Of a DNA stretch of 64,000 nt, positions 23,964-63,733 are shown one piece after another. The stretch comes from Tubiluchus corallicola (Eukaryota > Priapulida > Priapulimorpha > Priapulimorphida > Tubiluchidae), in the NCBI GenBank assembly GCA_030141605.1, contig JAQGDQ010000777.1, forward strand, positions 27,501 through 91,500, given 5' to 3'. Numbering within the stretch: position 1 is the stretch's first letter; each line of letters starts with the position of its first letter. The notes beneath the pieces are model-generated. The model worked only from the letters and a program-made list of their open reading frames with translations. It ran no database searches and was not told the DNA's origin. A program made the position numbers and the translations under genes.

Positions 23964-24146
23964 CTACGTACTCAGAAAAGCCAGTGGACCTTATAATTGG
24001 TTTGTCGAGAGTGTACATGCATCTGTCTAAATCTAACCAAAACCAGTCAGCTTATTCCATAGCTGTAAAGACGTAAGAATTCAAATTTATCAGCGCAATT
24101 TTCGAAAGAACTAGTATTGATAAACACCCTCAATTTGTGTTAGAAT

Positions 24147-26165: not shown

Positions 26166-29029
26166 AGCTGCAAGCAAAGTTTGATGAGCTTGAAGCACAG
26201 GGTGTAGTCCGTCGCCCTGAAGATGTTAATGTTACTGTCGAATACCTAAACCCCTCATTCTTAGTCAAAAAGCGCAGAGGTGGTCATCGTCTTGTAACAG
26301 CCTTTTCAGATGTTGGCAGATATAGCAAGCCCCAGCCATCTTTAATGCCTGATGCCAACACTATCCTACAAACTATCGCCCGTTGGCGTTACATCATTGT
26401 ATCTGACCTAACTGATGCTTTCTATCAGATTCCATTAGAACATTCTTCTATGAAATATTGTGGGGTAGCTACTCCATTCCGTGGCATCAGAGTGTACACC
26501 AGATGTGCCATGGGCATGCCTGGTTCTGAAACGGCACTAGAAGAATTAATGTGTCGGATCCTCGGTGACTCTCTCCAAGATGGCTTTGTTTCTAAATTAG
26601 CAGATGACCTCTATTGTGGAGGTGATACCCCTGAAGAACTCTTGGACAATTGGCATCGGGTTCTTGACGCTCTTCACAAGTCTAACATCCACTTATCTCC
26701 CACAAAGACTATCATCTGTCCAAAGTCAACCACCATACTAGGATGGATTTGGACACAAGGCAACAGTGCCGCTAGCCCTCACCGCATAGCCACCTTATCA
26801 ACATGCCCTGCACCAGATACAGTCCATGGTCTTCGATCATTTATTGGTGCATATAAAGTACTTGGACGTGTCTTACCTGGCTGTTCCCTTGTGTTAGCCC
26901 CTCTAGAGGATGCCATCGCTGGACTGCAGTCACGTGACAAGCTGCAGTGGACCGATGAATTACACCACCATTTTGCCGCTGCCCAAAAGGCTCTATCTAT
27001 GCACAAACCCATTATTTTACCAGTACCTTCAGATCAGCTGTGGATAGTAACTGATGGATCTGTCACTAAAAGGGGAATTGGTGCTACTTTGTATGTTACC
27101 CGCAATTCCAAATTATTTCTTGCCGGATTCTTCAGTGCCAAGTTACGCAAACATCAGGTTACATGGTTACCTTGTGAGGTAGAAGCCTTGTGCATTGCTG
27201 CTGCTGTCAAACATTTTAGTCCCTTTATTATACAGTCGACTTCTCACCCCTGCGTACTAACGGACAGCAAACCATGTGTTCAAGCTATTGAAAAGCTTTG
27301 TAGAGGCGAATTTTCCGCCAGTCCTCGTGTCACGTCATTTTTATCCACCGTAAGCCGCTACCAGGTAACTGTCCGGCACCTCTCAGGAAATGCCAATATT
27401 CCTTCGGATTTTGCAAGTAGAAATGCACCTGAGTGCAACGAACCACATTGTCAGATCTGCTCATTTATCATACAGACCGAAGATTCTGTTGTCCGTTCCG
27501 CCTCAGTGCAGGACATCATCAATTGTACTGCTCCATTGCCCTTTACCACCAGATCAGCATGGAGGGACATCCAGTCTGGCTGTCCAGATTTGCATCGCAC
27601 TCATGCCCACCTTCGGCAAGGAACGCGTCCGTCAAAGAAATGCACTAACATCAAAGATGTTAAAAGGTACCTCAATGCCGCTACAATTGCTAAGGATGGC
27701 TTATTGGTTGTGCGTCGTCATGAGCCATTGCACCCTTCCATGGAGCTCATCGTGGTTCCACGTTCTGTTCTGGAAGGCCTTCTCACAGCTCTTCACATAA
27801 AGCTTAGTCACCCTACAAAGCATCAGCTTCAGCTCGTTGCCAGGCGCCACTTCTTTGCTTTAGACATGTCAAAGTCCATTGATCGAGTTACTGACTCATG
27901 CCACATGTGCTCGTCTCTGAAAAAGTTTCCCCAAAGTCTTATTAGCCAGTCATCTGATTCTCCTCCCAATGCTGTTGGTCTGTCCTTTGCTGCGGACATT
28001 CTTAAACGTCATCGCCAACTTATCCTAGTAGTGCGAGAAACATCCACTTCTTATACGAATGCATGCATCGTGCCAGATGAAAGAAGCGACACCTTTCGTG
28101 AAGCTCTTGCTTGCCTTTGCTTAGATCTTCACCCTCCAGATGGCCCTTCTGCAGTAGTCAGAGTGGATCCTGCTCCTGGCTTTCGTGCTCTTTCCAATGA
28201 CAGCACTCTTCTGCAGCTTGGTCTTTCTCTGGAAATTGGACGTATTAAAAATCCAAATAAGAACCCAGTTGCAGAGCGTGCGATCCAGGAATTGGAAGAA
28301 GAACTTTTGCGCCACGAACCTGGAGGTGGACCCGTATCCCGTTTAGGTTTGTCTATGGCTCTCGCTCGCCTAAATTCTCGCATCCGCCATGGCGGTTTGT
28401 CCTCCCGGGAGTTGTGGACACAGCGCGACCAGTTCTCTCATGATCAGCTACCCATTTCTGACAGAGATACTATCATATCCCAACACATGCAGCGCCAGGC
28501 CAATCACTCACACAGCGAATCCTCTAAATGTCCCAGTAGACGAAATCCTAATCACCCTGTTATCAATATAGGAGACTTGGTCTACCTTTACTCAGATCGC
28601 GATAAATCCCAGGCACGCAGCAGGTATCTTGTCACTGGTATTGATGGAGAATGGCTCTTTCTAAAAAAATTTACTGGTTCGCAATTGCGTGCCTCATCTT
28701 ATAAAGTAAAGCACTCTGAATGTTATTTAGTTCCGACCCACACAGACCATGACAAGTATCCTCCGCCTCTGTTAAAACATAGTTTCTGCGATGATGACGA
28801 TGACTCCGAGGCCGTGTCTGCCTTTCCAATTCCCCATCAGCCATTGATACCCATCACTCTTTCTTCACCCCCATCTGACAGCTATACAGACAAGGCATCT
28901 GCTGTCCCTCAGCAGTTGTTCCCGACTTGCGACACTTCAACCGAGCAATCTATCCCTCCAGCCACCGATTATTCTCATCCAAAACGCAGTCGTCGCCCCC
29001 CAAAATATCTTGCTGACTACGTTACCTGA
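26099..29029 (+). CDS. Nested element ORF2: RT, RNase H, integrase
   Basis: 976 codons from ATG 26099. RT spans roughly residues 60-240, with catalytic LADDLY near 167. RNase H follows (VTDGS near 317, CEVEAL, LTDSKP). The integrase HHCC zinc module is near 566-610, with core D in FAADI (~630), D in VRVDPAPG (~688) and E in VAERAIQELE (~724), a D-35-E spacing. The C-terminus has a DLVYLY-type chromodomain-less tail and an acidic/Pro-rich end. All catalytic residues seem present, unlike the broken host element. Confidence 0.9.
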   Translation: MGPVQPPQRKGRVPQYSRDKLIELQAKFDELEAQGVVRRPEDVNVTVEYLNPSFLVKKRRGGHRLVTAFSDVGRYSKPQPSLMPDANTILQTIARWRYIIVSDLTDAFYQIPLEHSSMKYCGVATPFRGIRVYTRCAMGMPGSETALEELMCRILGDSLQDGFVSKLADDLYCGGDTPEELLDNWHRVLDALHKSNIHLSPTKTIICPKSTTILGWIWTQGNSAASPHRIATLSTCPAPDTVHGLRSFIGAYKVLGRVLPGCSLVLAPLEDAIAGLQSRDKLQWTDELHHHFAAAQKALSMHKPIILPVPSDQLWIVTDGSVTKRGIGATLYVTRNSKLFLAGFFSAKLRKHQVTWLPCEVEALCIAAAVKHFSPFIIQSTSHPCVLTDSKPCVQAIEKLCRGEFSASPRVTSFLSTVSRYQVTVRHLSGNANIPSDFASRNAPECNEPHCQICSFIIQTEDSVVRSASVQDIINCTAPLPFTTRSAWRDIQSGCPDLHRTHAHLRQGTRPSKKCTNIKDVKRYLNAATIAKDGLLVVRRHEPLHPSMELIVVPRSVLEGLLTALHIKLSHPTKHQLQLVARRHFFALDMSKSIDRVTDSCHMCSSLKKFPQSLISQSSDSPPNAVGLSFAADILKRHRQLILVVRETSTSYTNACIVPDERSDTFREALACLCLDLHPPDGPSAVVRVDPAPGFRALSNDSTLLQLGLSLEIGRIKNPNKNPVAERAIQELEEELLRHEPGGGPVSRLGLSMALARLNSRIRHGGLSSRELWTQRDQFSHDQLPISDRDTIISQHMQRQANHSHSESSKCPSRRNPNHPVINIGDLVYLYSDRDKSQARSRYLVTGIDGEWLFLKKFTGSQLRASSYKVKHSECYLVPTHTDHDKYPPPLLKHSFCDDDDDSEAVSAFPIPHQPLIPITLSSPPSDSYTDKASAVPQQLFPTCDTSTEQSIPPATDYSHPKRSRRPPKYLADYVT

Positions 29030-29490
29030 ATTTTATCCTTTTTCTTCAGCATTTACATATCAAGTTGTAAGTGTGCCTTTTTGACTTTATAATGTAAGTT
29101 ACACACAAATTTTGTATTGTGTTTTTGAGTAACATAATCCGATAATATTACCCTAAATCATTGACTTCATGCTAAGTTCTATTATAGTCGTGCTGTATTT
29201 CTTTGGTCATCTGTGTATTACCTCTTTCTATATGTAATACTGTGACAGCTATCGTTAATGCACTTATATTCGCATTACTGTACAAGCACATACTGTTTTC
29301 ATGATAAACAACGTATATTAATGTTGTGCACCGCACATCGTAGTTTGCGATAGTTCATAAATTACATTCTATATCGTTTGTATTGTAATTCTAGTTACAA
29401 GTTTCACCTTTTGTGTCATATTACATGTATACTAAATGTTGTTTGATTTTGTTTCTAGCCATCGGTTAAGAAAAAGGAAAAGAGAAGCCG
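29030..29490 (+). other. 3' untranslated region and polypurine tract of nested element
   Basis: AT-rich non-coding region, ending in the purine run AAGAAAAAGGAAAAGAGAAG (29468-29487) just before the 3' LTR, as needed for plus-strand priming. Confidence 0.8.
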
Positions 29491-29696
29491 CGCCAGTATA
29501 CATGCGTGTTGTTAGTTTTATCAACTTTACCCCTTTTGCAAAGTTGCTCTTTTGTTTTCAGCTTCTTTGTTTTTCGGGTTGCGCTCATCTTTCTAGTTAT
29601 AACCTCGTTGCTTTGCGAGTTACAATAAAGTTGTTAAATTTATTCTTGTCGTCTTGGTGTTTGAGACAAAGCTGGAACATTCTTTAATTAATGGCG
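29491..29696 (+). repeat. 3' LTR of nested Ty3-like element
   Basis: 206 bp; I see no difference from the 5' LTR. Followed by CTC and then the resumed zinc-knuckle codons of the BEL element. Confidence 0.92.
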
Positions 29697-32600
29697 CTCA
29701 GTGTACTGGCAATCACAATTTAGACAAGTGTGAAAGATTCATGGAGCTAGATGCCGAGAATAAAACAAAGCTTGTTAAAGAAAAGAAATTATGTTTCAAC
29801 TGTTTAAAGGCTAAACATTTTTCCAGAACGTGCAATCGCCCAGGTTGTGCAGTGGAGAACTGCAATATGAAACATTCAAAGCTGTTACATGAGGCCTTCA
29901 CATTGGACAAGTCTGATGTTCAGCAAAATGAGAAGAAGCTTACTGAGGCAAGTAGTTGTGCCTGCAAGTCAATGCAGACTTCTACAAGAACTTCTTTGCC
30001 TGTTGTTGCAGTTTTTGTCAAAACATCTGAACATGCCAAGGGAATGGTTACTCATGCTTTGTTAGATCCTGGCAGTAACAAGTCATTTTGTTCCCGACAA
30101 TTAGTTGAGAAGCTTGGCCTGCAAGGACACGAGCAGACTTTGTCATTATCAACTTTGAATAATGGGTCAATGGTTAAGGCACTGGAAATATCTCTGTATG
30201 TCAGTCCGACCTTTGGCAAACCAGTTGATAGAGAAGTCATTTATCTTTCTAAAGTTTATGCCTTGGAGAAATTTCCATCTTTGCGGGATAGCGTGGTTAC
30301 CAGTTCAGATGTATGTAGTTGGGAGCATTTAAAGAATTTACGACTAGCTAACATGAGGCCAGCAGAAGATGTCTTATTACTGATTGGACAAGACTGTGCT
30401 CATGCATTTAAGCCTCTGCAAGTAAAGGCAGGGAATTCCGGAGAACCATATGCTGTACGGACGCCATTGGGCTGGGTTGTGAATGGACTTCATAATCTTG
30501 ATTCTCAGAATTTGAATGCTGTCGTCAATGTCGTGCAATCTGATGAAGACTTAACAATCCAAGTGAAAAGATTTTGGGAGGTTGATTCATTGGATAATGT
30601 CGACCAGCGCAGTATGTCACTTGAGGACAAGGAAGTGCTAAATGTGTGGGACAGTTCAGTGCAACTAATAGATGGTCACTATAACTTGGACATACCATTT
30701 AAAGTGAATCCTCCTGATCTGCCCGATAATCGCAAGATTGCTGAGAAGCGCCTTCAGTCATTGAAGTATCGGCTCTCAAAGGACCCTGAGCTGCATAAAA
30801 AATATACACTACGCATGAAGGAGCTTCTAGAAAAAGGTTATGCAGAGAAAGTTGCAGCATGTGACTTAGAAGGAACACCTGGATTTGTGTGGTACCTCCC
30901 GCATCATGGTGTAGTGAATCCGAATAAGCCAAAACTTCGCATTGTCTTTGATTGCTCCGTCCTGTTTGAAGAGATTTCTTTAAATAAAGCTGTCAAACAA
31001 GGGCCCGACTTGACAAACGGTTTGCTAGCTGTTCTGATTCGATTTCGGGAAGGCCCTGTGGCACTTATGTCTGACATAGAGGCCATGTTTAACCAGGTTG
31101 TAGTATCCAAACATCATCGAGATGTTTTGCGGTTTTTGTGGTACCCAGATGGTGACTTGACAAAACAACCACAGGTCTACAGGATGACGAGGCATCTTTT
31201 TGGAGGTAATTGGAGCCCCAGTTGTGCTACATATGCTTTGCAGAAAACTGCCCTGGATAACATTCACGAGTTTGACAGCAAGATTATTGATGCAGTGCTT
31301 CGTGATTTTTATGTTGACGACTGTTTGAAGAGCTTTTTGACTGATGATGATGCCACTGAGTTTGTAGTTAAATTGACAGAGTTGTTAGCCCGTGGTGGGT
31401 TCCATATAACTAAATGGATTAGCACTAGTGTCAAGGTACTCGAAATGGTTCCTGAAGAGGATAGAGCTGAATCTGTTCGAGAAATTGACATTTGAAAAGG
31501 TTCCTTGCCATTAGAAAGAGCTCTGGGCTTACGTTGGAATGTGGACAGAGATGAACTTTGTGTCCAAGCCAAATTAAAGGAGAAGCCACTCACAAAGCGA
31601 GGTTTATTGAGTGTTCTTTCTTCCGTGTATGATCCTTTGGGTCTAGCCTGTCCCGTTACACTTGTAGCAAAGAAGCTCTTTCAGCAAGAAAGCAGACTAA
31701 GGAAAGAATGGGACAGCCAGTTGTCTACTGATGTTCAATACCACTGGATTAACTGGATGAAGCAAGCTACAAATTTAGATCAGTTTGGTGTTGAGAGATG
31801 CTTCATGCCAAAGAACTTTGGACATGTGCTGAGATGTGAATTGCATGTCTTTGGAGATGCATCTGAGGATGCTTATGCTGCTGTGGCATATATGCGGCTT
31901 GTGAATGCTGATGAGGAGATACACTGCTGTCTTGTTTTGGCCAAAGCACGGCTAGCTCCCATGCATAGAATGACTGTTCCTAGGCTAGAGCTATCGGCAG
32001 CTGTACTTGCTGTTAAGATCGGCCAGACAATCTCGCGTGAGTTGAGAACCGACATAGATGAGACCTGGTACTGGACTGATAGCAGTATAGTTCTGGGCTA
32101 CATACACAACACTGATAAACGCTTCAAAACGTTTGTAGCTAACAGGCTGGGTATTATACATGAAGCTTCTATGCCTTCTCAATGGCACCATATCAGAAGT
32201 GAGGACAACGTTGCTGATGATGCTTCAAGAGGCTTGTCAGTTGATGAACTACTTCAGCAGAAAAGATGGATTAATGGTCCTGAGTTTTTGTGGTTGCCAA
32301 AATCTGAATGGATAGAACTCGAGGTAAAAAATTTGCATCATCCAGAAATGGAAATCAAGCGTGAAAGTGCGAAGTCTCAGAAAGTTGTATCATGTGGTGC
32401 AGTGGCATCAGTAGAAGCCGAGTCGGATGCTTTAGAAAATATGTTTAAGAGGCACTCATCGTGGTACAGGCTGCGAAAATCTGTCGGCTGGATCCTGCGG
32501 CTGCGGAACATTTTACTGAGCAAAGCTAGAGGAATGGATGCTAAGTCCTTTGATGCCAGTTTATCTGTTGAAGAACTGCAGCAGGCAGAGATCAGCATTG

Positions 32601-33859
32601 TCAAATATCTACAGTACAAGTGCTTGAAAAATGATGATGTAATGAAAACTCTGAGGAAGTTAAATCCTGTCATAGATTCCAATGGAGTGATGTGTGTAGG
32701 GGGCCGTGTGAAGAGCATGCACCAGATGATTCTGCCTAAACATCATCACATAGTAGACCTGATTATACGTGAAGCACATGAAATGTCAGGACATTCTGGA
32801 CGAGAGTATGTGGTTGCCAAGCTGAGACAGAAGTACTGGATCATCAAGGTTAGAACCAGAGTCAGATCACTCTTATCGAGCTGCATAGTCTGTAGACGAC
32901 GTGATGGTGTTCCATTGTCTCAAAAAATGGCTGATCTGCCAGATGATCGCGTGTCTCCAGCTCTATCTGCCTTCACAGCTGTTGGTGTGGACTGCTTTGG
33001 TCCGTTTTTTGTCAAAAGAGGTCGGTCAGAGATGAAGAGATACGGATGTGTCTTCACTTACCTGACAATTCGTGCTGTTCACATAGAGGTACTACATTCC
33101 CTGGAGACTGATAGTTTCATTAATGCTCTTTTCAGATTTATTTCTCGCCGTGGGCCTCCGTCTGTCATCCGATCTGACAATGGCACTAACTTTGTCGGTG
33201 CAGAGAAAGAATTGAGATCAGCAATATGCAACTGGGATCAGCAGAAGATTACAGATGTTCTACGGAAGCGTCATGTACAATGGATCTTTAACACACCAGG
33301 TGCATCCCATCATGGTGGAGCTTGGGAAAGGATGATCCGATCCATTCGCAGAGTTGCCTTTTCTATATGCAGTGAGCAAAGGCTTGACGATGAAAGCTTG
33401 CCTACTCTGATGTGCATGGTAGAGTCCATTATAAATGATAGGCCGATCACAACAGTGTCAGATGATCCAAATGATCTTGAGGCTCTCACTCCAAACCACT
33501 TACTGTTGTTAAGAGCTGGATCAGTACCTGTCAAGCTCTTTGATTATTCTGACTTATATAGGCGAAGATGGCGCCAGGTACAGTATTTGACAGATGTCTT
33601 TTGGCGGCGATGGACTCATGAATATCTTCCGATGCTGCAACAATTCTAAAAGTGGGAGAAGCAGAAGGAAAATCTCAAGTGTGGAGATGTTGTTCTATTA
33701 ATCGACAACACCTTGCCAAGAAACCGTTGGGAACTTGGACGGATTATGGATACTTATCCGGGTAAAGATGGCTTGGTCCGCTCTGTGTTGCTCAAGACAA
33801 AGTCGTCAACTCTGAAACGGCCTGTGCAGAAACTTTGTCTGCTTGAGCGTGTTTCATAA
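29697..33859 (+). pseudogene. BEL/Pao pol region with two in-frame stops
   Basis: Resumes in the gag frame with QCTGNHNLDKC (zinc knuckle), then protease (LLDPGSNKSF, near 30063), RT with YVDD (near 31310), RNase H (HVFGDASEDAYAAVAYM, near 31845), integrase zinc module (HEMSGHSG ... CIVC, 32778-32900), core D (GVDCFGPF), D (RSDNGTNF) and E (GGAWERMIRSIRR). TGA at 31493-31495 and TAA at 33647-33649 interrupt an otherwise single frame; it ends at TAA 33859. It cannot make a full polyprotein as it stands. Confidence 0.9.
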
Positions 33860-41600: not shown

Positions 41601-44600
41601 ATAGGTGCCTTCAATATGGTCACCAATACATTTGCTAACCAGAGCCCAGAGCCAGCATTGTTTAACATTGGTTGCAAAACCGCTCCAGAAGCCATTCGCC
41701 TCATCAGTTTAACCAGCTTATTTCAGAGGAACGATAGGTGGCTTCAGTATGGTCACCAATACATTTGCTAACCAGAGCCCAGAGCCAGCATTGTTTAACA
41801 TTGGTTGCAAAACCGCTCCAGAAGCCATTCGCCTCATCAGTTTAACCAGCTTATTTCAGAGGAACGATAGGTGGCTTCAGTATGGTCACCAATACATTTG
41901 CTAACCAGAGCCTAAAGGCAGCATTGTTTAACTTTGTTTGCAAAACCGCTCCGGGAACCATTCGCCTCATCAGTCTTTGTGTTTCTAGGCAACGATAGAC
42001 TGTCTAACCAGCTTACTTCAGAGCAATCATAGGTGGCTTCAGTACGGTAGGACCTCTGACAGGACCATGAGTTCACTGCTCGCCGCTTGCATTTCTGTGA
42101 TAAATCTGTGTGAAGAATTACAGGAGAAACAGGAGGCGTAAGTACTGCTGGTTATTTTTGTCTAAAGACTTGTATATGCTTATGCTTCAGTTCAATTCAA
42201 TAGATTTATTTTGCAATAAACAAATACTTATGCATTGCATGTACATTGATAATTTTTGTCTAAAGAGATGTATATGCTTATACTTCAATTCATTTCAATA
42301 GATTTATTTCGTAATAAACAAATACTTATGGATCACAAGTAAATGATAATTTTTGTCTAAAGAGATGTATGAAGTATATGCTTATGCTTCAATTCAATTC
42401 ATTTGATTTATTTTGCAATAAACAATTGACGACAATTCATTGCAAATGTTGGACCAAGGCTTTGGAATGACATAAATGATGAATTAAAAACTGTTCAGCC
42501 TATTCAAAAATTTAAAAAGAAATATAGAGCAATGATTTTCAACAAGTACAACACTTCGTAATATCCTGCAACTACTGCAGCAGTCATACCACAATCCTGG
42601 TACAGATTATACAAAACAAGACATCATTGATAAATCTTTAGAGCTGATGTCAACATAGCACAATCTATTATCTTTCTTCCTACCATTTCCACTAACACAT
42701 CCTTCTACCCTTCCTGTGTGATCTAACCTTTCTCCTGGTTCTTTTTTTGTTCACTCATCCATTCTTTTTTTATCGGGTTCACATGACAGTGGGCTTATAC
42801 AAGCCTTTGCTTCTCTAGCCCAGTGCAGTACAATTAATCTTTTATGATAGCGATAGTGTATGAAACATGACAATTTAATACAGTATGAAGTAACAATTTT
42901 GTTGTCACTGTGTACTTAATGTCATTATATTGTACTGAATGTGATAATAATAAACTATAACTAAACTATAACGATGACATTGAAGATGATATTTTGTGAC
43001 GAGGTCAGTGTGAAGAAGTTGTGTACTGAAAAATTGTCATATTTGGTTGCTCTGTATACTTGCTTCGTGTGATTAGTTTCGTTGTTTATAGGATGGCCAC
43101 GGACCTTCAGCGGAAACTCGGCAGGCTGCTGGTCGCCTTGTGTCGTCGTGACCATCCGTCCAGCTTCACATGTCTCCTACTGTCCGCCGTGCAGACTGTT
43201 GTTACCAGCGAATCCTTCTGGTCGCTGACTAGCCCGGAGATCTTCGCCGCCGTGTACACTTTGGTATCGGCGCTGTACAAGCACCCTCATGTGAATATGT
43301 GTGATGCCGGACAGTGCAACGTGGTAACACGAGTGCTCATAGAGAAAGTCGGTCTTCACCAACACTGTGAGGTATTTTGAGATCACCAAGTTCTTTGAAA
43401 ATTATATACAGTAGGCACCTTTGATTAGATTCAGTGTTAATAGACTTACTAAAACTCTGGCTGCATTACTACCATCAATTATATTTAAATGTTCTGTACA
43501 ATTATAGTTATTACTACAAGTATAATGTATAATTTAATCTCTTCTCCCCCACTTAAATTTGGGTACATATGTGTATATGTATATCATTGTATATACAAGT
43601 AAGCAATATGGTGCATTGTAATACAAGTAAGTTGTGCATTGACAGATAATCACATAATTCATATTCGTAACTGTTTACCCTCTTTACGGCTCATTCAAAG
43701 TCGTAATTACATATTATGTTTTCCTTTTTCAACTTTCAGGTTTATTGCTCTTATACCATTGCTATTATTACATCATTTACTTCATCCTTAATTACATTAA
43801 GTTATCTACAGAAGCATGCATAACTATAATCAGTTTTTCATTTAAGTAAGGTGAGTGTGTTAATGACCGTATGCTCATACACTCACCTCGCACTACTCAA
43901 ATTATTTTATTTAAAATTTATTAATGTGTTTGATATTGTATTTTCATAGTAAAATTCATAGTTCATAGTTCATTCGCATAATTGACTCAAAAACGCCTGG
44001 TACAGACCGCTTCAATTCAAATGTACATAAAAACTGTCGGTAATTGACTCAAATAACTCTGCATAATTGACTCAATATTTTTGCTTCACATGCTTCAATG
44101 AGACACTTTCCTGTGACTAATAAGCTTTTATGACTTTTATATCACCTTAGTTCCCTTTTGTCCTATAATATACGTAGAAACAATCATGTTAAGTACCGTT
44201 TTGTTTGTAAGCAGGAACCTTTATCATACGCTAATATGCTAGCCAAATGGCTTGCTTTGAGCCGCCTGTATATATATACACGTACGTACGTACGTACGTA
44301 CATGTGTATGTATGAATGTATATGTATTTATGTATTATGTATATATATATATTTATGTATTTATGTATATATATATATATAACTCAATATTTGACTCAAT
44401 ATTTTTAGATATATTAATAAATATAGAACAAATATAGAATATAGAATGTGTGTGTGTGTGTGTGTGTGCGTGCGTGCGTGTGTGTACACATACACCCACA
44501 CACACACATATATATATATACAGATATACACACATGCATAAATATATATTATATATTTATAATATATAAAAATCTTAGCCTTGCCGTTGTAGGTTTAAAA

Positions 44601-58300: not shown

Positions 58301-61300
58301 GTGGCTATCGTCAGCAAACTGAAATCGGCCTACGTGACCGGCAGGGCGTCTAGAAACACTCGACTACAGGAGAACGTTTTGCTGTCGTACGGCCAGTTGG
58401 GAAGGTGGGTTATCACTAAATTATTTAATTCATTATTTATGCAGGGATGAGAATTTTGCGCGGATACGCAGAATTCCGAGTTTTTGGAAGACCAGTAGTG
58501 CCATTTTTGTAAATCGCGTAAATTCGTTGAGAAAATTTTTACGGGCCCAGTACATTATTTCGCAAGCTGACCGCTAGCTGGCAGGCCGTCACTTTGTTTA
58601 CATCACGTACATCAGTGTAACCACTTGTATATCTCTATGTATAAAAATGTAGATTCAATTGTGCGGAGTTATTTGAGTCTATTGCAGACAGTTTTTATAT
58701 ACTTTTGCATAGGAGTGGTCCGTACTTAGGCGTTTTTGAGACAATTAGGTATCATGTATCCTTGATAGTTGGGTATTTTAAATTATGCATGAAACAAGGT
58801 AATTGATATTGAAATTTGTTGCTGTGTCCAAAAGGGCTTCGCCTTTGGCCAAGAGGGCCTACGCGGCTCCCAAACCCCCAGCCTGTTTCAGAGTTTTTTG
58901 CAATTTGTCATTCTCATCCCTGCATTCAATCACTTTGCACAGCGCTTTGCTCTTTAAGCCCCTGCTGCTTTTTGCACGTGGAAACAAGGACATCACCAAC
59001 TGCAGCTCAAGCACTAGGTGACTAGGTATTTTGCACAAATATGTGCAGCGCACGGCGAAAGATTTTTAATGTTTCTATCATCATGAAAATATCATAAACC
59101 AACTCCTCCGCGAATAAATGAAACAATCGACCTTGCACGAATTTTTGTAACTCTTAGTGGTAATAATCAGATTTGTGCGATTTTTTTTATTTTTTTTAAT
59201 TCACTCACGTAAATTAGTATTCTTAAATAATTGCACCTACCAATTTTGTCATTAATTCGTTTTTGAAATTTGTTTAAAGCCTTATAGTGCATACTAGTTA
59301 GTTAAGACTTAGGAACCACCCTGTACGTACGTACACATAATTTATTTTATGCTGCATACTAGTTAGTTTAAACTTAGGAACCACCCTGTACGTACGTAAA
59401 CATAATATATTTTATAGTGCATACTAGTTGGTTAAGACTTAGGAACCACCCTGTACATACATGTAATTTATTTTGTACTGCATATCAGTTAATTAAGTCT
59501 TAGGAACCACCCTGTACTTACGTACATTTAATTCATTTGATAATGCATATAAGTTAATTAAGACTTAGGAACCACCCTGTACGTATGTACACGTAATTTA
59601 TTTTCTAAAGTGCATACTAGTTGGTCAATACTTAGGAACCACCCTGTACGTACGTAAATGTAATTTATTTTAAAGTGCATACTAGTTGGTCAATTCTTAG
59701 CAACCACCCTGTACACGTAATTTAGTGATTTTCGTCAACATCAGTATTTATTTGTGGCTGTTTTTGACAAATGAAATCTGCGCCTTATTTTTTTTGGAAA
59801 AACAGAATTGCAGACACTGAAGTCCTGCGTGTGGTCACCGTCAGTTTGTTGGACGCCATATTGCCCGGAGAACCATCAGTGACCGAAATTGCTCAGCTGC
59901 AACTGCGAGATGTCGCCGCCGGTCAAAAGCTTTCGCCGACGGATCTGTTCAACAAGTTTCGCGTGGATATCTGCTTGGTAGGTTTTCGCTTATTTCCTTT
60001 AAAGTTTTGACTATGCAAATTGTTGAAATTTTGGTGAAACTTGGGGAAACACGTGGGCCTGGGGGGGGGGTTAATTTGCCGGCTGAATTGGCGAATGAAC
60101 TTATTAGCAGTTAGGTTAGGTTCAAACTTGGTTCCGGGATGGGTGGATAGCAATTATGTGCGGATATGCGGACTGCGTATCAAATAGTACTAACACAATG
60201 CATATTGTACTATTAAATAGCAGTAATAGTAGTGGTAGTAGTAGCAATAGCAACGGCGGCGGCGGCAGCAGCAGTAACAGCAGCAGCGGTAGTAGTAATA
60301 GCCCAAATAAAACTTATTTTTGCATGTTGCAGTTTCTCGGGAACTTTCTGTATGCCAGAGTTTCGCAGAAGTCCTCTGAGGAACCGCTAGGTGTCCTGCA
60401 GAAAGTTGTCGCCATGTTCGAATTTGCCGACGTTCAGTCTTTCCTCACTGCAAATCTTCAGTATCTGTTGCCAGTTCTGGTCAGCAAGGCATCGCCCGTG
60501 GCCACGGTCATACTCAGACTCATCAGCAAACAGCTTGATATGGTAACAAATAGTTTCATGGTAACAAATAGTTTCAAATAGTTTCATTGTAACAAATAGT
60601 TTCAAATAGTTTCATGGTAACAAATAGTTTCATGGTAACAAATAGTTTCATGGCAACAAATAGTTTCAGTGGGAGGGAGAGAGAGAAAGAGAGAGAAAGA
60701 GAGAGAGGGAGAGAGAGAGAGAGAGAGAAATAGAGAAAGAGAGAGAGAGAGGAGGGAAGAGAAAGAGAAGAGAGAAGAAGAGAGGGAAAAGAGAGAGAGT
60801 AAGAGACGTCAAGTAATATGTACATTTGCTAAGTATAGAAGTTTATACACCTGGACATTTTCGTCACACTTTACAGGCTAAAAAGCAAATGTTGGCTGTG
60901 AACTTTGCTTACATTTTCTCCTATCTGGTACGAGTGCGATCGGACGTCAACTTGAAGGACGTGCTGGTCTACGTTCAGAAAGAGACGGAACTGGATCTGG
61001 GAAAATTGATGAGGCTGCATTATCAGGACATGCTTAATGAGGTGCTGCTCTACCTGTCTACACATTACAAGCAGGTATGCTGTATCTGTCTACGCTTTAA
61101 TAACAGGTATGTTCTACCTGTCTACACATTGTAAACACATATGCTCTACCTGTCTACGCATTATAAGCAGGTATGCTCTACCTGTCTACGCATTATAAGC
61201 AGGTATGCTCTACCTGTCTACGCATTATAAGCAGGTATGTTCTACCTGTCTGCACATTGTAAACACATATGTTCTACCCGTCTATACATTATAAGCAGGT

Positions 61301-63632
61301 ATGTTTTGCTTGTCTACACATTATGAGCAGGTATTCTCTACCCGTCTACACATTATAAGCAGGTATACTTTATCTGTCTACACATTATAAACAGGTATGC
61401 TTTAACTGTTTACACACTATAAGGAGGTATGCTCTACCCGTCTACACATTATAAGCAAGCATGCTTTACCTGTCTACACTTTATAAACAGGTATGTTCTA
61501 CCTGTCTACACATTATAAACACGTATGTTTTACTTGTCTTCATATTATAAGCAGGTATGTTCTACCTGTCTACACATTATAAGCAGGTATTCTCTACCTG
61601 TCTACACATTATAAACAGGTATACTTTATCTGTCTACACATTATAAACAGGTATGCTTTAACTGTTTACACACTATAAGGAGGTATGCTCTACCCGTCTA
61701 CACATTATAAGCAAGCATGCTTTACCTGTCTACACTTTATAAACAGGTATGTTCTACCTGTCTACACATTATAAACACGTATGTTTTACTTGTCTTCATA
61801 TTATAAGCAGGTATGTTCTACCTGTCTACACATTATGAGCAGGTATTCTCTACCCGTCTACACATTATAAGCAGGTATACTTTATCTGTCTACACATTAT
61901 AAACAGGTATGCTTTAACTGTTTACACACTATAAGGAGGTATGCTCTACCCGTCTACACATTATAAGCAAGCATGCTTTACCTGTCTACACTTTATAAAC
62001 AGGTATGTTCTACCTGTCTACACATTATAAACACGTATGTTTTACTTGTCTTCATATTATAAGCAGGTATGTTCTACCTGTCTACACATTATGAGCAGGT
62101 ATTCTCTACCTGTCTACACATTATAAACACGTATGTTTTACTTCTCTTCATATTATAAGCAGGTATGTTCTACCTGTCTACACATTATAAGCAGGTATTC
62201 TCTACCTGTCTACACATTATAAACACGTATGTTTTACTTCTCTTCACATTATAAGCAGGTATTCTCTACCTGTCTACACATTATAAACACGTATGTTTTA
62301 CTTGTCTACACATTATAAGCAGGTATGTTCTACCTGTCTACACATTATAAGCAGGTATCCTCTACCCATCTACACATTATAAGCAGGTATACTTTACCTG
62401 TCTACACATTATAAGCAGGTATACTTTACCTGTCTACACATTATAAGCAGGTATACTTTACCTGTCTACACATTATAAGCAGGTATTCTCTACCTGTCTA
62501 CACATTATAAACACGTATGTTTTACTTGTCTTCATATTATAAGCAGGCATGTTCTACCTGTCTACACATTATAAGCAGGTATTCTCTACCTGTCTACACA
62601 TTATAAGCAGGTATTCTCTACCTGTCTACACATTATAAACACGTATTTTTTACTTCTCTTCATATTATAAGCAGGTATGTTCTACCTGTCTTCACATTAT
62701 AAGCAGGTATTCTCTACCTGTCTACACATTATAAACACGTATGTTTTACTTGTCTACACATTATAAGCAGGTATGTTCTACCTGTCTACACATTATAAGC
62801 AGGTATCCTTTACCCATCTACACATTATAAGCAGGTATACTTTACCTGTCTACACATTATAAGCAGGTATACTTTAACTGTTTACATGCGTAAATTTGTT
62901 GAGAAAAATTTTCGGGGTTGAACCTTGTTTTCGTCGAAATTGCAACCGAAACTTTCAGTAGCATTTTTCAGTAGGTATTTATCCAGCTTACCTTTTATCT
63001 CCTAGATGTTAAAAATTGCTGAAAAATTTTGTTTATAATAGTTCAAATATAGCGTAAATATCGTTTATTTGATAATCTGTACGATTTGTAGCATGCCTTT
63101 TATGGTAATGCGGCATATCTTCATTGCTGACAAGTGTGAAGCTTTGAGGCCTCCAGACACGTAATTTGAATAAAACCAAGTTTAATTTTAGAATTTATGA
63201 AATATAGGCAACAAAATATATGCAAAATAAAATTTTTGAAGCTTCATGGTCATATGTATCATGTATCCTTGATAGTTGGGTATTTTAAATTATGCATGAA
63301 ACAAGGTAACTGATATTTTAAGACCACTTAGAGGCTCTCTATGGTCACAAAATTGCAATGTGTTGCTGCCCTCAAACCTCCAGCCTGTTTCAGAGTTTTT
63401 TGCAGTTTGTCATTCTCATCCCTGATTTCTTGATGTCATCCGCTTCTTTCTTTTCCCTACTGTCTAGGTGTTCAATGGTTTAGTGATGTTGGCCGAAAAG
63501 GACAAAACACCGCAGCAAATAATCAGCGAGGAAGAGATGGCGGAATTCTTGCAGCCGAGACTTTTGGGATTTCTCGCGTTTTTTGACGCTCATCTCCTCA
63601 ACTCCATGCGCTCCATAGATGAGAAGAAATTG
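34947..63632 (+). CDS. ATR: ATR serine/threonine kinase, N-terminal 20 coding exons (continues beyond window)
   Basis: join(34947..34996,36047..36135,37133..37261,38693..38863,40027..40301,42043..42137,43092..43371,44759..44952,46473..46578,48597..48840,49965..50123,51653..51747,52395..52600,54410..54591,56586..56712,58237..58404,59806..59977,60333..60542,60877..61074,63468..63632), 3315 nt, 1105 codons, every junction phase-consistent. ATR is the PIKK that senses RPA-coated ssDNA with ATRIP and activates CHK1. The segment covers the N-terminal HEAT-type helices and enters the UME domain. Diagnostic matches to remembered human ATR: EKRRRLS, SIPWI, PFFSLLTNFDPEVKL, LPVLVSKASPVA, NFAYIFSYLV, VFNGLVMLA, LQPRLLGFLAFF. 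FAT, kinase and FATC lie outside. Confidence 0.93.
35190..35680 (+). repeat. 109-bp tandem array preceded by an inverted copy (ATR intron 1)
   Basis: CAAGAAAAAGAACTAGCGAC recurs at 35251, 35360, 35469 and 35578, exactly 109 bp apart. The sequence at 35190-35247 (ACTAGTTTGCTGACGAGTAA ... GTCGCTAGTCCTTTTTCTT) is an inverted copy of the unit start, so the array begins with a hairpin of roughly 50-bp arms. Confidence 0.88.
36047..36135 (+). CDS. ATR: ATR exon 2
   Basis: Acceptor ttttactgcag, donor GTAAGC. Encodes VREDKELEEIRQFRSTILET then VQRVQAVKAG; aligns with the PEEYNTVVQKPRQIL region of human ATR. Confidence 0.82.
36237..36294 (+). mobile_element. hAT-type MITE remnant (right end)
   Basis: GGGGGCCTTGCTCCTCAA ... 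TTTTTTGCAGTTTGTCATTC ... CATCCCTG equals the right end of 50597-51082. Confidence 0.7.
36434..37094 (+). repeat. Dispersed repeat family E
   Basis: Colinear with 6706-7350 over its whole length. Ends about 38 bp before ATR exon 3, so it supplies part of that intron's 3' end. Confidence 0.78.
37133..37261 (+). CDS. ATR: ATR exon 3 (ends at a GC donor)
   Basis: Acceptor tttttcag. Encodes DVEDAGDLTMKLLHCVHKFM then IDNPKIFVESVGRAS...NQSR. The donor that keeps frame with exon 4 is GCAAGT at 37262; the GT four bases on breaks the frame. Confidence 0.85.
37495..37690 (+). mobile_element. LINE 3'-end remnant
   Basis: AGACATGACTTATTTACAAATC, TTTCTCAGCTTTTAACAT and GGGAACCATACCCTAGATAA match the 3' end of the LINE piece at 37800-38190; a second, shorter copy of the same tail. 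Confidence 0.65.
37800..38190 (+). mobile_element. LINE ORF2 C-terminal fragment (ATR intron 3)
   Basis: Open frame reads VKCWNNLPLDIRNSNSLNVL, KSRLKNHMCFNKLPNYF, HHTRMRVGFCQLNYDLYF, C-x-C-G-x8-H-x3-SCPL. W-N-x-LP-x-x-IR and the HTR-x-R-x-G block with a Cys/His finger are typical ends of CR1/L2/Jockey-type ORF2. 5'-truncated. Confidence 0.75.
38653..38681 (+). repeat. (TTA)n microsatellite next to ATR exon 4 acceptor
   Basis: About ten TTA units end 11 bp before the acceptor ttgttctag, replacing the usual polypyrimidine tract. Confidence 0.85.
38693..38863 (+). CDS. ATR: ATR exon 4
   Basis: Acceptor gttctag, donor GTATGT. Encodes DYTVWLFGAVLRIASEEKAS then VRRQCEDELHALLMLVKM...LIGVIS; matches human NWIITRLLRIA and following helices. 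Confidence 0.88.
38979..39020 (+). mobile_element. Pogo-type MITE end remnant
   Basis: TA-CAGTAAGTCCTTGCTTAACG resembles a pogo-type terminal repeat; the partner end is not visible. Confidence 0.45.
39297..39831 (-). mobile_element. Family-B pogo-type MITE carrying a captured EGF-like exon
   Basis: Outer parts match the family at 51083 and 53347 (TGCATATAAGGGACTC, GTGTAGCAATAATCCATAAA, CCTCGGTCTGACTCAACTTC, end ATATCCGAGGTTGGCTG-TA). Between about 39475 and 39715 there are roughly 240 bp absent from the other copies. The left terminal repeat is missing. Confidence 0.72.
39478..39574 (-). pseudogene. Captured calcium-binding EGF-like exon fragment
   Basis: On the minus strand a splice acceptor ctctgttctgccag is followed by AT|ATAAATGAGTGT, encoding DINECDTNTDSCHADATC, TNTVSSFICAC. 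D-I-N-E-C plus C-x5-6-C-x4-C pattern and F-x-C-x-C is a cbEGF module, and phase 1 entry is the usual phase for such exons. The module loses its last Cys where MITE sequence resumes. Confidence 0.72.
40027..40301 (+). CDS. ATR: ATR exon 5
   Basis: Acceptor gttttgaaag, phase 1; donor GTAGGT, phase 0. Encodes DLSNMSVGYPQLLCRFCVKN ... HQLQLILTDVLRRFHFEIIT ... LCQQLSAGSLPLKM. Confidence 0.85.
40520..40632 (+). mobile_element. Small TIR element remnant
   Basis: TACAGTAATCGCCGTTTAAT at the left and ATGTAGTATTACTGTTATAG at the right give CAGTAAT/ATTACTG ends around about 100 bp. Weakly supported. Confidence 0.4.
41165..42042 (+). repeat. 133-bp tandem array ending in the ATR exon 6 acceptor
   Basis: CACCAATACATTTGCTAACC occurs at 41193, 41355, 41488, 41621, 41754 and 41887: spacing 162 then 133 four times. 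The first and last units keep an extra 29 bp (CTTTGCGTTTCTAGGCAACG...). Each unit ends ATAGGTGGCTTCAG, and the last one is the real acceptor at 42042. Confidence 0.9.
42043..42137 (+). CDS. ATR: ATR exon 6
   Basis: Acceptor gtggcttcag (inside the repeat) is the only nearby AG giving phase 0; the AGs before 42051 and 42063 do not. Encodes YGRTSDRTMSSLLAACISVI then NLCEELQEKQEA. Donor GTAAGT, phase 2. Confidence 0.78.
42439..42561 (+). mobile_element. LINE ORF2 terminal fragment (ATR intron 6)
   Basis: Frame reads IANVGPRLWNDINDELKTVQ then PIQKFKKKYRAMIFNKYN before a stop. R-x-W-N-x-I-x-x-ELK and FKK-x-Y are typical last residues of several LINE ORF2 proteins; family differs from 37800. Confidence 0.65.
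43092..43371 (+). CDS. ATR: ATR exon 7
   Basis: Acceptor gtttatag, donor GTATTT. Encodes MATDLQRKLGRLLVALCRRD ... FAAVYTLVSALYKHPHVNMC ... VVTRVLIEKVGLHQHCE. Confidence 0.88.
44275..44575 (+). repeat. Compound microsatellite (ACGT)n, (TA)n, (TG)n
   Basis: ACGTACGTACGTACGTAC, TATATATATA blocks and GTGTGTGTGTGTGTGTGTGC follow one another in ATR intron 7. Confidence 0.9.
44759..44952 (+). CDS. ATR: ATR exon 8 (basic KRRRLS segment)
   Basis: Acceptor cattttag, donor GTAAGA. Encodes LQEVLIHCLVNEVQSQKSHS ... LPEKRRRLSVTKVAAAASK; the SPKRRRLSSSL stretch of human ATR is at the same place. Confidence 0.9.
45320..45660 (+). repeat. 83-bp tandem repeat, about four units
   Basis: CACAGTTCAAC followed by TTTCATATTCTTTG and TTCAACC-CCAGAGTGA recurs at 45331, 45412, 45495 and 45578. 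ATR intron 8. Confidence 0.85.
45955..46155 (+). repeat. Family G repeat, left arm of an inverted pair around ATR exon 9
   Basis: GGAAGATAGGATGATTTTTC ... TTAATGGTGGGCGAGCCCAA ... GATGACATCACAAACTAACA. Its inverted partner is 47620-47895. Confidence 0.8.
46473..46578 (+). CDS. ATR: ATR exon 9
   Basis: Acceptor ttgtttcag, phase 2; donor GTATGT, phase 0. Encodes ESTTDGGAVSKNEVGETLKL then VRKQVDIIIERIRLQ. Confidence 0.83.
46622..47097. mobile_element. Pogo/Tc1-type MITE with TA target duplication
   Basis: TA-CAGTCATACCTCGGTTTTCG at the left; GTTGAAAACAGAGTTATGACTG-TA at the right, imperfect inverted repeats of about 24 bp. No transposase. Confidence 0.83.
47298..47480. repeat. Long imperfect palindrome
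   Basis: TATTGCTTGTTGGTTCTTCA ... TTAGCAATATGCAACACTCT pairs with AGAATGTTGCATATTGCTAA ... GAAGCAACAAGCAATAATA; arms of about 58 bp around a 60-bp loop. Confidence 0.85.
47620..47895 (-). repeat. Family G repeat, right arm of the inverted pair
   Basis: Reverse complement reads GGAAGACAGGATGATTTTTC ... TTAATGGTGGGCGAGCCCAA ... CATCACAAACTAACAAAATT, pairing with 45955-46155 across exon 9. Confidence 0.8.
48120..48520 (+). repeat. Large compound trinucleotide microsatellite
   Basis: Runs of AGT, AGC, GGT, GAT and AAT repeats; the last block is about (AAT)20. The long ORFs drawn across it are artefacts of the repeat. Confidence 0.95.
48597..48840 (+). CDS. ATR: ATR exon 10
   Basis: Acceptor ctctttcag, donor GTATGC, phase 1 out. 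Encodes DGNLEILTCGLAVLAESVAV ... TTWEYWLPSF ... YKFYMSVLHFVAVLLYVSG. Confidence 0.86.
48871..49285 (+). repeat. Dispersed repeat family F
   Basis: Colinear with 11156-11540. It starts almost immediately after the exon 10 donor, so it occupies the 5' part of intron 10. Confidence 0.75.
49965..50123 (+). CDS. ATR: ATR exon 11
   Basis: Acceptor tagcttcag, donor GTACGT. Encodes DGMQLEANDSIDFSSLMWIV, SIPWIAVESSWVDLW, TCAQVAQMLG; human ATR has LSLPWIY here. Confidence 0.87.
50235..50490 (+). repeat. Family G repeat, partial copy
   Basis: GAAAGCCGGATGTTTTTTCAT ... GTGATGACATCACAAACTAA ... AACAGCGCAAACATTCCATG, same order as 45955. Confidence 0.7.
50489..50585. repeat. Hairpin-forming palindrome
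   Basis: AAATTTTGAGTTTAAAATTT pairs with AAATTTTAAACTCAAAATT over a 10-nt loop, and outer CAGTGTGTTATACAG pairs with CACACTGTATAAC. Confidence 0.85.
50597..51082. mobile_element. hAT-type MITE, left end truncated
   Basis: Right terminus CTCTCATCCCTG present; left starts inside the element at GAGTTTTTGGAAGACCAG. It abuts the next MITE with no base between. Confidence 0.8.
51083..51540. mobile_element. Family-B pogo-type MITE
   Basis: CAGTCAACCTCTGATATAAG at the left and TATACCCGAGGTTGACTG-TA at the right are inverted copies; interior equals 9918-10294. Confidence 0.83.
51653..51747 (+). CDS. ATR: ATR exon 12
   Basis: Acceptor attttttcag, donor GTAAAA. Encodes DEAAQCRCIDLLGMFPKGVA then PGWKIHVIRLAL; matches human QAQSRCVFLLTLFPRRI. 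Confidence 0.88.
52019..52310 (+). mobile_element. tRNA-derived SINE (+ strand)
   Basis: Same family as 12063-12335: GATGGTTTAGTCTAACGGTA head, AAAATGGTACATGCTGTTGC, GTATTTAGGGTAAAAGTGGG, TTTACAGTCGGCGATAATAG, then a long (ATT)n tail. The B box is degenerate here. Confidence 0.8.
52395..52600 (+). CDS. ATR: ATR exon 13
   Basis: Acceptor gattttcag, donor GTAAGG. Encodes TLEDSALLYSSALRAFVNIL ... LLHAALSTENKALLLTLANI ... QTVVK. Confidence 0.88.
53347..53805 (-). mobile_element. Family-B pogo-type MITE with TA duplication
   Basis: TA-CAGTTAACTGTACC at the left and ATATCCGAGGGTGACTG-TA at the right. Inverted relative to 51083-51540. Confidence 0.8.
54287..54345 (+). repeat. Family E repeat, 5' fragment
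   Basis: GAACAAGAAAAGGGGTACCT ... AGAAAAATCGCCTTAAAAAA, the start of the family; ends about 65 bp before exon 14. Confidence 0.75.
54410..54591 (+). CDS. ATR: ATR exon 14
   Basis: Acceptor ttttctctag, donor GTGAGT. Encodes RAVNFKPGSSLTRLLVLECS ... VELVAPFFSLLTNFDPEVKL G; human PFLFLLKKKIPSPVKL aligns. Confidence 0.88.
54628..55290 (+). repeat. Family F repeat, duplicated copy
   Basis: Two successive starts (GGAAAATCGGACGATTGTTA at 54628 and CGAAAACCGGACGATTGTTT at 54897) precede one full 3' half with TATTTGTCGGCCACGCGAAT. Confidence 0.72.
55419..55485 (-). pseudogene. tRNA-like relic
   Basis: Minus strand contains GATGGACTTGAAGTCCA (resembling a Ser-TGA anticodon arm) and CCTGGTTCAAATACAC (T-arm-like), preceded by GCGCTGTCTAACGATCAT. 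The T stem does not pair and no long variable arm is present, so it is not a working tRNA. Confidence 0.35.
55735..56365 (+). repeat. 22-bp minisatellite, about 28 units
   Basis: Unit GTGAAACTGGTGTTTGTTGC plus two variable bases. Variation is confined mostly to GTTTG/GTTCG and the dinucleotide before GTG. ATR intron 14. Confidence 0.92.
56586..56712 (+). CDS. ATR: ATR exon 15
   Basis: Acceptor ttattcacag. Encodes EIVSALKSLFTHVRLDGSES then MKYVEMFLSLLDDANEQIQE MFR. Donor GTTCCG is weak but is the one giving phase 2 into exon 16. Confidence 0.83.
56753..57385. mobile_element. Pogo-type MITE with TA duplication
   Basis: TA-CAGTGTTCCCTCGCTACTT at the left and ATAAGTGAGGGAACACTG-TA at the right. 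No transposase. Confidence 0.85.
57622..58106 (-). repeat. Family E repeat, inverted copy
   Basis: AAAACCCTTCATAAACATAA ... GTTTTTTAAGATATACCTTG is the reverse complement of the 36434 copy. Confidence 0.75.
58237..58404 (+). CDS. ATR: ATR exon 16
   Basis: Acceptor gttatttcag, donor GTGGGT. Encodes KVVPYLLRCGTASKDGSTEI, RVAIVSKLKSAYVTG, SRNTRLQENVLLSYGQLG R; human QISRNNELKDTLILTTGDIGR aligns. Confidence 0.9.
58442..58922. mobile_element. hAT-type MITE, both TIRs intact
   Basis: CAGGGATGAGAATTTTGC at the left and GTCATTCTCATCCCTG at the right. Best full-length reference copy in the window; no clean TSD. Confidence 0.85.
59285..59722 (+). repeat. 65-bp tandem array, seven units
   Basis: TTAGGAACCACCCTGTAC recurs at spacings of 65, 65, 61, 65, 67 and 65 bp, with CATACTAGTTAGTTAAGACT between. 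Ends about 80 bp before exon 17. Confidence 0.9.
59806..59977 (+). CDS. ATR: ATR exon 17
   Basis: Acceptor ggaaaaacag, donor GTAGGT. Encodes RIADTEVLRVVTVSLLDAIL ... EIAQLQLRDVAAGQKLSPTD then LFNKFRVDICL; human SFFSQYKKPICQFL aligns at the end. Confidence 0.9.
60200..60302 (+). repeat. AGT/AGC/GGC trinucleotide tract just before exon 18
   Basis: Open in the exon 18 frame as Ser/Asn/Gly repeats (NSSNSSGSSS ...). Ends about 30 bp before the exon. Confidence 0.88.
60333..60542 (+). CDS. ATR: ATR exon 18
   Basis: Acceptor gcatgttgcag, donor GTAACA, phase 0 both ends. Encodes FLGNFLYARVSQKSSEEPLG, KVVAMFEFADVQSFLTANLQ, YLLPVLVSKASPVATVILRL, ISKQLDM. Confidence 0.92.
60540..60668 (+). repeat. 18-bp repeat that begins at the exon 18 splice donor
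   Basis: Unit ATGGTAACAAATAGTTTC, about seven units with small insertions. The first unit is ATG|GTAACA, the real exon end, so several units re-create the donor. Confidence 0.88.
60668..60810 (+). repeat. GA-rich microsatellite
   Basis: GAGAGAGAAAGAGAGA-type purine tract in ATR intron 18. Confidence 0.95.
60877..61074 (+). CDS. ATR: ATR exon 19
   Basis: Acceptor ctttacag, donor GTATGC. Encodes AKKQMLAVNFAYIFSYLVRV, LKDVLVYVQKETELDLGKLM, LHYQDMLNEVLLYLSTHYKQ; human NNFKYIFSHLV and LKNETEIELGSLLRQDFQ align. Confidence 0.93.
61048..62888 (+). repeat. 32-bp minisatellite derived from the exon 19 / intron 19 boundary
   Basis: Unit GTATG(T/C)TCTACCTGTCTACA followed by CATTATAAGCAG, roughly 57 units. 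The first unit is the last 27 nt of exon 19 plus its donor; later units differ from exon 19 mainly by TAC to TAT. Many carry AAGCAG|GTATGT, a good donor match. Confidence 0.95.
63243..63422. mobile_element. hAT-type MITE fragment (right half)
   Basis: TGTATCCTTGATAGTTGGGT ... GTCATTCTCATCCCTG, ends 45 bp before exon 20. Confidence 0.78.
63468..63632 (+). CDS. ATR: ATR exon 20 (start of UME region), probable GC donor
   Basis: Acceptor ctactgtctag. Encodes VFNGLVMLAEKDKTPQQIIS, EEEMAEFLQPRLLGFLAFFD, SMRSIDEKKL. Human reads VFNGLSILA and LQPKLLGILAFF. Frame stays open to 63695, but no GT donor is convincing; GCAAGT at 63633 is. The 3' boundary is therefore less certain than the exon. Confidence 0.85.
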
Positions 63633-63733
63633 GCAAGTTCATTACAGAGTTGTAAAATGATACGAATGATATTATTAATGATACAAATTTATTGAAAAAT
63701 GATACTGTATTGTTTACATGCGAATCATCCATC

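What the first reader, a model, noticed from the sequence alone, without database searches (positions are those of the whole stretch)
61048..62888. A minisatellite made of a splice junction: about 57 copies of the ATR exon 19 end plus its 5' splice site
The 32-bp unit contains the last 27 nt of exon 19 (9 codons, one base changed) and the GTATG donor. The true exon boundary is unit one. The intron therefore carries dozens of decoy 5' splice sites in strong context right after the real one. A 32-bp step is out of frame, so use of most decoys would break ATR. The array either depends on first-donor preference or sets up length-dependent mis-splicing, and could also buffer U1 binding. I know of no described case of this scale.
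Basis: partly seen in the sequence, partly recalled or inferred. Interest (0 to 1): 0.9.

Follow-up and report, generated by a model that had tools for sequence, protein, structure and literature searches.

The report
Splice-donor minisatellite in an animal ATR
In an unidentified animal, the end of one exon of the DNA-damage gene ATR, together with its splice signal, has been copied in tandem dozens of times into the next intron, so the cell presumably has to ignore dozens of false splice signals, some predicted to be stronger than the real one, to make this protein.

Summary
Window 61046-62886 is a 32-bp array (57.5 copies); each unit is the last 27 nt of an ATR exon plus its GTATG donor, and unit one is the real exon end. 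Of 58 homologues spanning the join, 56 lack indels there, so the array came from conserved coding sequence. A second contig of the assembly, apparently the other allele, has about 30 intronic units instead of 56; its exons 19-20 encode identical protein (11 synonymous differences) and its exon tail equals window units 3-5. All 56 extensions modelled give premature stops. GT survives in 50/56 and 20/30 units, so decoys are not visibly purged.

Most likely: neutral expansion of a junction-spanning duplication, tolerated because the first donor wins, perhaps with leakage to decay. No RNA was available. The architecture is known: the human CBS 31-bp VNTR (24 exon + 7 intron nt, 16-21 copies).

New: scale and recurrence. 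In the same gene three other donors and the stop codon begin tandem arrays. None of 73 dynein exon hits from this genome has an array of five or more copies at its edge, but most of those loci are array-poor.

The parts
60369..60542 (+). ATR exon '18', homology-supported part; ends ATG|GTAACA
60540..60668 (+). 18-bp array starting at the exon-18 donor (7.1 copies; shares only the last 3 nt of the exon; later copies include ATG|GTAACA three times, ATT|GTAACA and ATG|GCAACA); 2.1 copies on the second contig
60877..61074 (+). ATR exon '19' (198 nt); tail LYLSTHYKQ is conserved in ATR homologues
61040..61043 (+). AGGT inside the exon, 33 nt upstream of the donor AGGT at 61073; possible microhomology for the founding slip (inference)
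   Evidence: both contigs
61072..61080 (+). authentic donor CAG|GTATGC
61046..62886 (+). 32-bp minisatellite: exonic first unit plus 56 intronic units, 50 of which keep GT; 8-unit higher-order period
61104..61112 (+). first decoy donor CAG|GTATGT (+32 nt), scores above the real donor on a recalled matrix; use gives a stop in exon 20
63169..63231 (+). two AATAAA hexamers (63169, 63226) in the intron downstream of the array; relevant only to the U1/polyadenylation rival
63468..63632 (+). ATR exon '20' (starts VFNGL); donor looks like a GC donor, TTG|GCAAGT, on both contigs

Best explanation
A tandem duplication that began 27-29 nt before the end of an ATR exon and ended a few nt past its 5' splice site was amplified by slippage or unequal exchange into a highly variable minisatellite (shown: sequence, exon origin, two very different copies of the locus; the process itself is inferred). 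Because the duplication spans a coding-to-intron boundary with the good copy first, every extra copy lies in the intron, and mRNA stays normal as long as the donor abutting the exon is chosen (inferred from protein conservation in both copies). The array is most likely a tolerated passenger of an unusually minisatellite-rich locus, at the cost of some leakage to downstream donors whose products all carry early stops and would be degraded (inferred, not shown). The same first-copy-works logic fits the three other donor arrays and the stop-codon array in this gene.
For: Array and register. Exon tail conserved across ATR: 56 of 58 spanning homologues without indel at the junction. The second contig C1638 is colinear, several long stretches 91-97% identical, 85.7% just after the array, and has about 30 intronic units; only 3 unit types are shared (of 29 and 30); its exon tail equals window units 3-5; exons 19 and 20 differ by 5 and 6 nt with identical protein. 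Own-genome searches found the unit on no other contig (the tool scores only its best candidates). GT is not purged: 50/56 and 20/30 keep it; non-consensus 8.4% at GT vs 11.0% at the other positions. All modelled decoys give stops: 56 here, 23 on C1638. Other boundary arrays in ATR. About 19% of the fetched C1638 and C2122 sequence lies in arrays of 5 or more copies vs 0% of 50 kb from two dynein loci.
Against: No RNA data here, so first-donor use is inferred only from homology and constraint. Allelism of the two contigs is inferred: the assembly also holds redundant contigs. The first decoy of the window's copy scores above the real donor, which should cause leakage; if none is found, an unknown protective mechanism is needed. 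From memory, SR proteins often favour the intron-proximal of two donors, the opposite of what is needed here (my one search for papers returned none). One array-rich dynein locus, C971 (44% in arrays), has none within 15 nt of its 5 exon hits.
Confidence: 0.78

Rival explanations
1. Selected regulator: array length sets the fraction of ATR pre-mRNA spliced to decoys and destroyed by nonsense-mediated decay, acting as a tunable damper on ATR.
For: All modelled decoys yield a stop; copy number differs about two-fold between the two contigs; in CBS more repeats are reported to go with lower activity.
Against: No sign that GT is kept better than other positions; only 3 unit types shared between the contigs; no expression data.
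Confidence: 0.1
2. U1 landing pad: the donors recruit U1 and suppress premature polyadenylation at the two AATAAA sites downstream in the intron.
For: 50 of 56 units keep GT and many pair with U1 (U1 letters recalled); AATAAA at 63169 and 63226.
Against: Two hexamers in AT-rich intron are unremarkable (my judgement, not tested); -1 and +5 are among the more variable positions (27% and 31% non-consensus), not what preserved U1 sites would show.
Confidence: 0.03
3. Nested or recursive splicing: CAG|GTATG is acceptor and donor in one, so pieces of the array are removed stepwise.
For: AG|GT is juxtaposed in most units.
Against: By eye no long pyrimidine tract before CAG, and in many units another AG sits 3 nt upstream; no RNA evidence.
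Confidence: 0.04
4. Assembly artefact: inflated or chimeric array.
For: Tandem arrays are hard to assemble; the assembly has redundant contigs and a contig ending in an inverted copy of itself.
Against: A second contig carries the same array with a different length, order and mostly different unit types, with diverged flanks.
Confidence: 0.03

Closest known systems
Human CBS 31-bp VNTR, c.1444_1467+7(16_21), exon 13/intron 13
   Same: Unit = exon 3' end (24 nt) plus start of intron (7 nt), so it carries the 5' splice site; near-identical unit length; polymorphic copy number; substitutions between units (PMC2630376, passages; also listed as 'exon 13-intron 13' in a table of PMC1395315, passage).
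   Different: 16-21 copies vs about 57 and 31 here. The passages describe one such array in CBS, whereas this ATR has several. A copy-number effect on activity is reported for CBS (PMC5188458, passage) and unknown here. The primary paper (Lievers 2001) was not held.
[quoted passage not shown]
   Same: Tandem duplication across a splice junction that splicing hides, leaving normal mRNA (PMC2630376, passage).
   Different: One extra copy, at the start of an exon, and the more distal of the two sites is favoured (the paper calls them donor sites).
Intron gain by tandem genomic duplication of AGGT segments
   Same: A duplicated exonic segment containing AGGT offers paired splice sites (PMC3443670, passages; PMC4974935, search listing only).
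   Different: No new intron is made here: exon 20's acceptor lies outside the array, 581 nt past its end.
Intronic VNTRs affecting splicing (ABCA7, MIR137HG)
   Same: Minisatellite linked to splicing (search listing only).
   Different: From the listing I cannot say whether those units carry a copied donor.

Membership tests
Exon-intron junction-spanning VNTR (CBS type) | Repeat unit holds the exon 3' end and its 5' splice site | tested here: met
Exon-intron junction-spanning VNTR (CBS type) | First unit is the functional exon end | tested here: met
   by homology and conserved join; not tested on RNA
Exon-intron junction-spanning VNTR (CBS type) | Copy number varies between alleles | tested here: met
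   56 vs about 30 intronic units on two contigs read as alleles; allelism itself is inferred
Exon-intron junction-spanning VNTR (CBS type) | Copy number lowers gene activity | not testable with these tools
   no expression data
Intron gain by tandem genomic duplication | Tandem duplicate of a segment containing AGGT | tested here: met
Intron gain by tandem genomic duplication | The new intron is bounded by the duplicated AGGT copies | tested here: not met
   exon 20 starts at 63468 after CTGTCTAG, outside the array
Recursive splicing ratchet sites | Acceptor and donor juxtaposed as AG|GT | tested here: met
   most units
Recursive splicing ratchet sites | Strong pyrimidine tract and RNA evidence of stepwise removal | tested here: inconclusive
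   tract weak by eye only; no RNA available

The most novel reading that the evidence does not exclude
In minisatellite-dense genes, arrays seed preferentially on boundaries where coding passes to non-coding in the direction of transcription (donor sites, stop codon), because processing that takes the first signal shields every later copy. This ATR, with four donor arrays and one stop-codon array, would be a natural stress test in which splicing must pick the first of up to about 50 similar donors, with array length setting ATR output.
Probability: 0.3. Interest if true: 0.8.

Novelty: new variant of a known kind. Interest (0 to 1): 0.58.

Why it matters
How the spliceosome chooses between near-identical competing donors has mostly been studied with two copies in designed constructs (recalled). 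Here nature offers one checkpoint gene with 50 and 20 GT-bearing decoy units on two copies of the locus, the first decoy strong in one and without GT in the other. Allele-specific RNA reads would directly measure first-donor preference and its cost. It also suggests a simple, testable rule for where minisatellites can live at gene edges.

Tried and rejected
Chance resemblance: rejected, the unit is coding-derived in register and the second contig's exon tail is identical to window units 3-5. Unit transposed from elsewhere: own-genome searches found it only on C2327 and C1638. Purging of decoys: not seen. Genome-wide habit of junction arrays: not shown. The dynein sample gave 35 exon hits in 50 kb and 38 in 59.4 kb. 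The first 50 kb hold no array of 5 or more copies at all, so they say little about preference; one AT-rich 12-bp x2.5 run at C64 14400-14429 does overlap an exon start. In one search no listed array lies within 15 nt of an exon hit; only C971 there is array-rich (44%, 5 exon hits). Enrichment at ATR donors: 4 observed vs 0.66 expected for 34 arrays and 28 hand-listed, partly approximate donors in 67,337 bp; Poisson tail about 0.005 by my own arithmetic. It is post hoc, and one of the 28 donors was listed because of its array. The P printed pairs a count of 4 with the expectation for 5-or-more-copy arrays, of which only 3 qualify, so I do not use it. Polarity (donor/stop vs acceptor): no acceptor-derived array was found among the homology-supported exons, but under one was expected, so polarity is not shown. 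Whole-frame PDB searches found nothing at E 0.001, being too diluted. Species not identified: the best ATR matches are two starfish at 50%, then other animals. Paper searches for junction-spanning minisatellites: in the titles and abstract starts listed I recognised no case other than CBS; most listed papers were not opened.

Full report
What is there. The stretch 61046-62886 is a clean 32-bp tandem array, 57.5 copies. In register, one unit is the end of an exon (CTCTACCTGTCTACACATTACAAGCAG|GTATG) and 56 follow in the intron before the array decays at about 62886. Neighbouring units are about 84% alike, but units 8 or 16 apart are 90-91% alike, so part of the array grew by copying 8-unit blocks.

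The gene. The stretches 60120-60542, 60877-61074 and 63468-63632, translated and joined, match human ATR chains at E 2.5e-40 over residues 87-262 of the 262; the first part (before about 60378) does not align. A later search with these and two further exons found 58 proteins, most of them named ATR, two starfish best at 50% identity. Pfam gave nothing above its cut-off for the piece. The species stays unknown. The join HYKQ|VFNGL is collinear in homologues: of 63 proteins in hand 58 span it, and 56 of these have no indel from nine residues before to three after. The exon tail is therefore old coding sequence and the array is its derivative.

The second copy of the locus. The window lies on contig C2327 of a 343.5-Mb assembly; the same exon and array were found on one other contig, C1638. 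C1638 is colinear with the window from about 54,000 onward; several long stretches are 91-97% identical, lower in and around repeats and 85.7% just after the array. Its array has about 30 intronic units. The contigs share only 3 unit types out of 29 and 30, and the C1638 exon tail is letter for letter window units 3, 4 and 5. Exons 19 and 20 differ at 5 and 6 bases and encode identical protein. A search with a snail ATR (20 of 43 candidates scored) found one ATR-like kinase region, on C2122 at up to 73% identity, besides more distant PIKK relatives at 21-41% on three contigs; part of the C2122 copy recurs inverted at that contig's end. I read C2327 and C1638 as alleles. Assembly redundancy elsewhere means this is inferred, but either way two diverged copies carry the array.

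Decoys. GT survives in 50 of 56 units here and 20 of 30 in C1638. On a human-like matrix recalled from memory, 13 decoys (CAG|GTATGT) score above the real donor (CAG|GTATGC), 5 equal it and the other GT units are weaker, mostly through changes at -1 or +5. The first decoy, +32, is one of the 13; in C1638 the first two units have lost GT and the first intact decoy is at +94. Every extension modelled hits a stop: in exon 20 for the first unit, 19 codons past exon 19 for the other 55 here, and 29 codons past it for all 23 downstream GTAT sites in C1638, three of which are not at unit junctions. Multiples of three do not rescue the frame because the array contains stops. Non-consensus bases are about as common at GT (8.4%) as elsewhere (11.0%), so there is no sign of purging or preservation.

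The same thing elsewhere in this gene. Intron 18 starts with an 18-bp array whose first unit is the donor itself with the last 3 nt of the exon, 7.1 copies here and 2.1 in C1638. Farther on, in C1638 (reverse-complement coordinates 32088-33538), 26 copies of a 56-bp unit read G-KRESLEEYLPFLL|GTACGT. That peptide is the conserved ATR stretch just before the next exon: of 50 homologue alignments (63 proteins tried, permissive cut-off), 47 extend into it. An N gap hides the sequence just upstream, so the exon proper is not seen separately. On C2122 a 68-bp array (7 copies) starts with the last 24 nt of a kinase exon and its donor, and a 53-bp array starts at the end of the ATR coding sequence, 23 coding nt and the stop codon in its first unit. 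A further 80-bp array begins 9 nt after another donor and carries GTAAGA, but is not clearly exon-derived.

Is that more than chance? About 19% of the fetched C1638 and C2122 sequence lies in arrays of five or more copies, against none in 50 kb of two dynein loci, which share interspersed repeats with the window and so belong to the same organism. With 34 arrays, 28 donors and 67 kb, 0.66 arrays should have a donor in the first unit; 4 do. This is post hoc, the donor list is partial, approximate and not fully independent of the arrays. In 73 dynein exon hits no array of five or more copies touched an exon edge, but most of those loci have almost no such arrays; the array-rich C971 locus (44%, 5 exon hits) had none within 15 nt. 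No acceptor-derived array was seen in ATR, but too few were expected for that to count.

How it most likely works. Duplications that start in the exon tail and end past the donor put the good copy first. If the exon-abutting donor is used, all later copies are intron. Slippage or unequal exchange then enlarges the array freely in an array-prone neighbourhood. An AGGT 33 nt upstream of the donor AGGT, on both contigs, may have primed the founding event. The expected price is leakage into stop-bearing isoforms; CBS gives the only precedent I found. Steps shown: anatomy, exon origin, length variation between two copies, stops for all modelled decoys, identical protein in both copies of exons 19-20. 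Steps inferred: allelism, first-donor use, leakage, decay, neutrality.

What is known. The human CBS 31-bp VNTR is 24 nt of exon 13 plus 7 nt of intron 13, 16-21 copies (PMC2630376, passages), and more units are reported to lower CBS activity (PMC5188458, passage); the primary paper was not held. CBS 844ins68 shows that splicing can hide a duplicated junction. AGGT tandem duplication is a supported route of intron gain (PMC3443670, passages), but this array does not bound an intron. So the architecture is known; the scale and the recurrence within one gene are what I did not find in the results listed.

Noticed in passing
window 63630-63638 and the C1638 equivalent: Exon 20 of ATR appears to use a GC donor (TTG|GCAAGT) on both contigs.
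   Followed up: partly
G000 C1957/C2045 (dynein, 4097-aa frame), C665 and C466 (PIKK-like, 3054 and 3925 aa frames): Very long single open frames for dynein and PIKK relatives in a genome whose other copies are split into exons: retrogenes, or another organism in the assembly.
   Followed up: no
G000 C45, C2048, C2100, C2197, C2212: Five contigs carry what looks like the same dynein gene with identical scores, a sign of redundancy in the assembly.
   Followed up: no
C2122 end (reverse complement 1-2133): The contig ends in an inverted copy of two ATR kinase exons with a matching array of about 70 bp, possibly a fold-back assembly error.
   Followed up: no
C1638 reverse complement 43164-43916: 80-bp array, 9.4 copies, starting 9 nt after an ATR donor (AAA|GTAAGT) and carrying AAAAAGTAAGAG in the units read.
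   Followed up: partly
window 24144-33649: Long retroelement-like ORFs (by eye), listed only.
   Followed up: no
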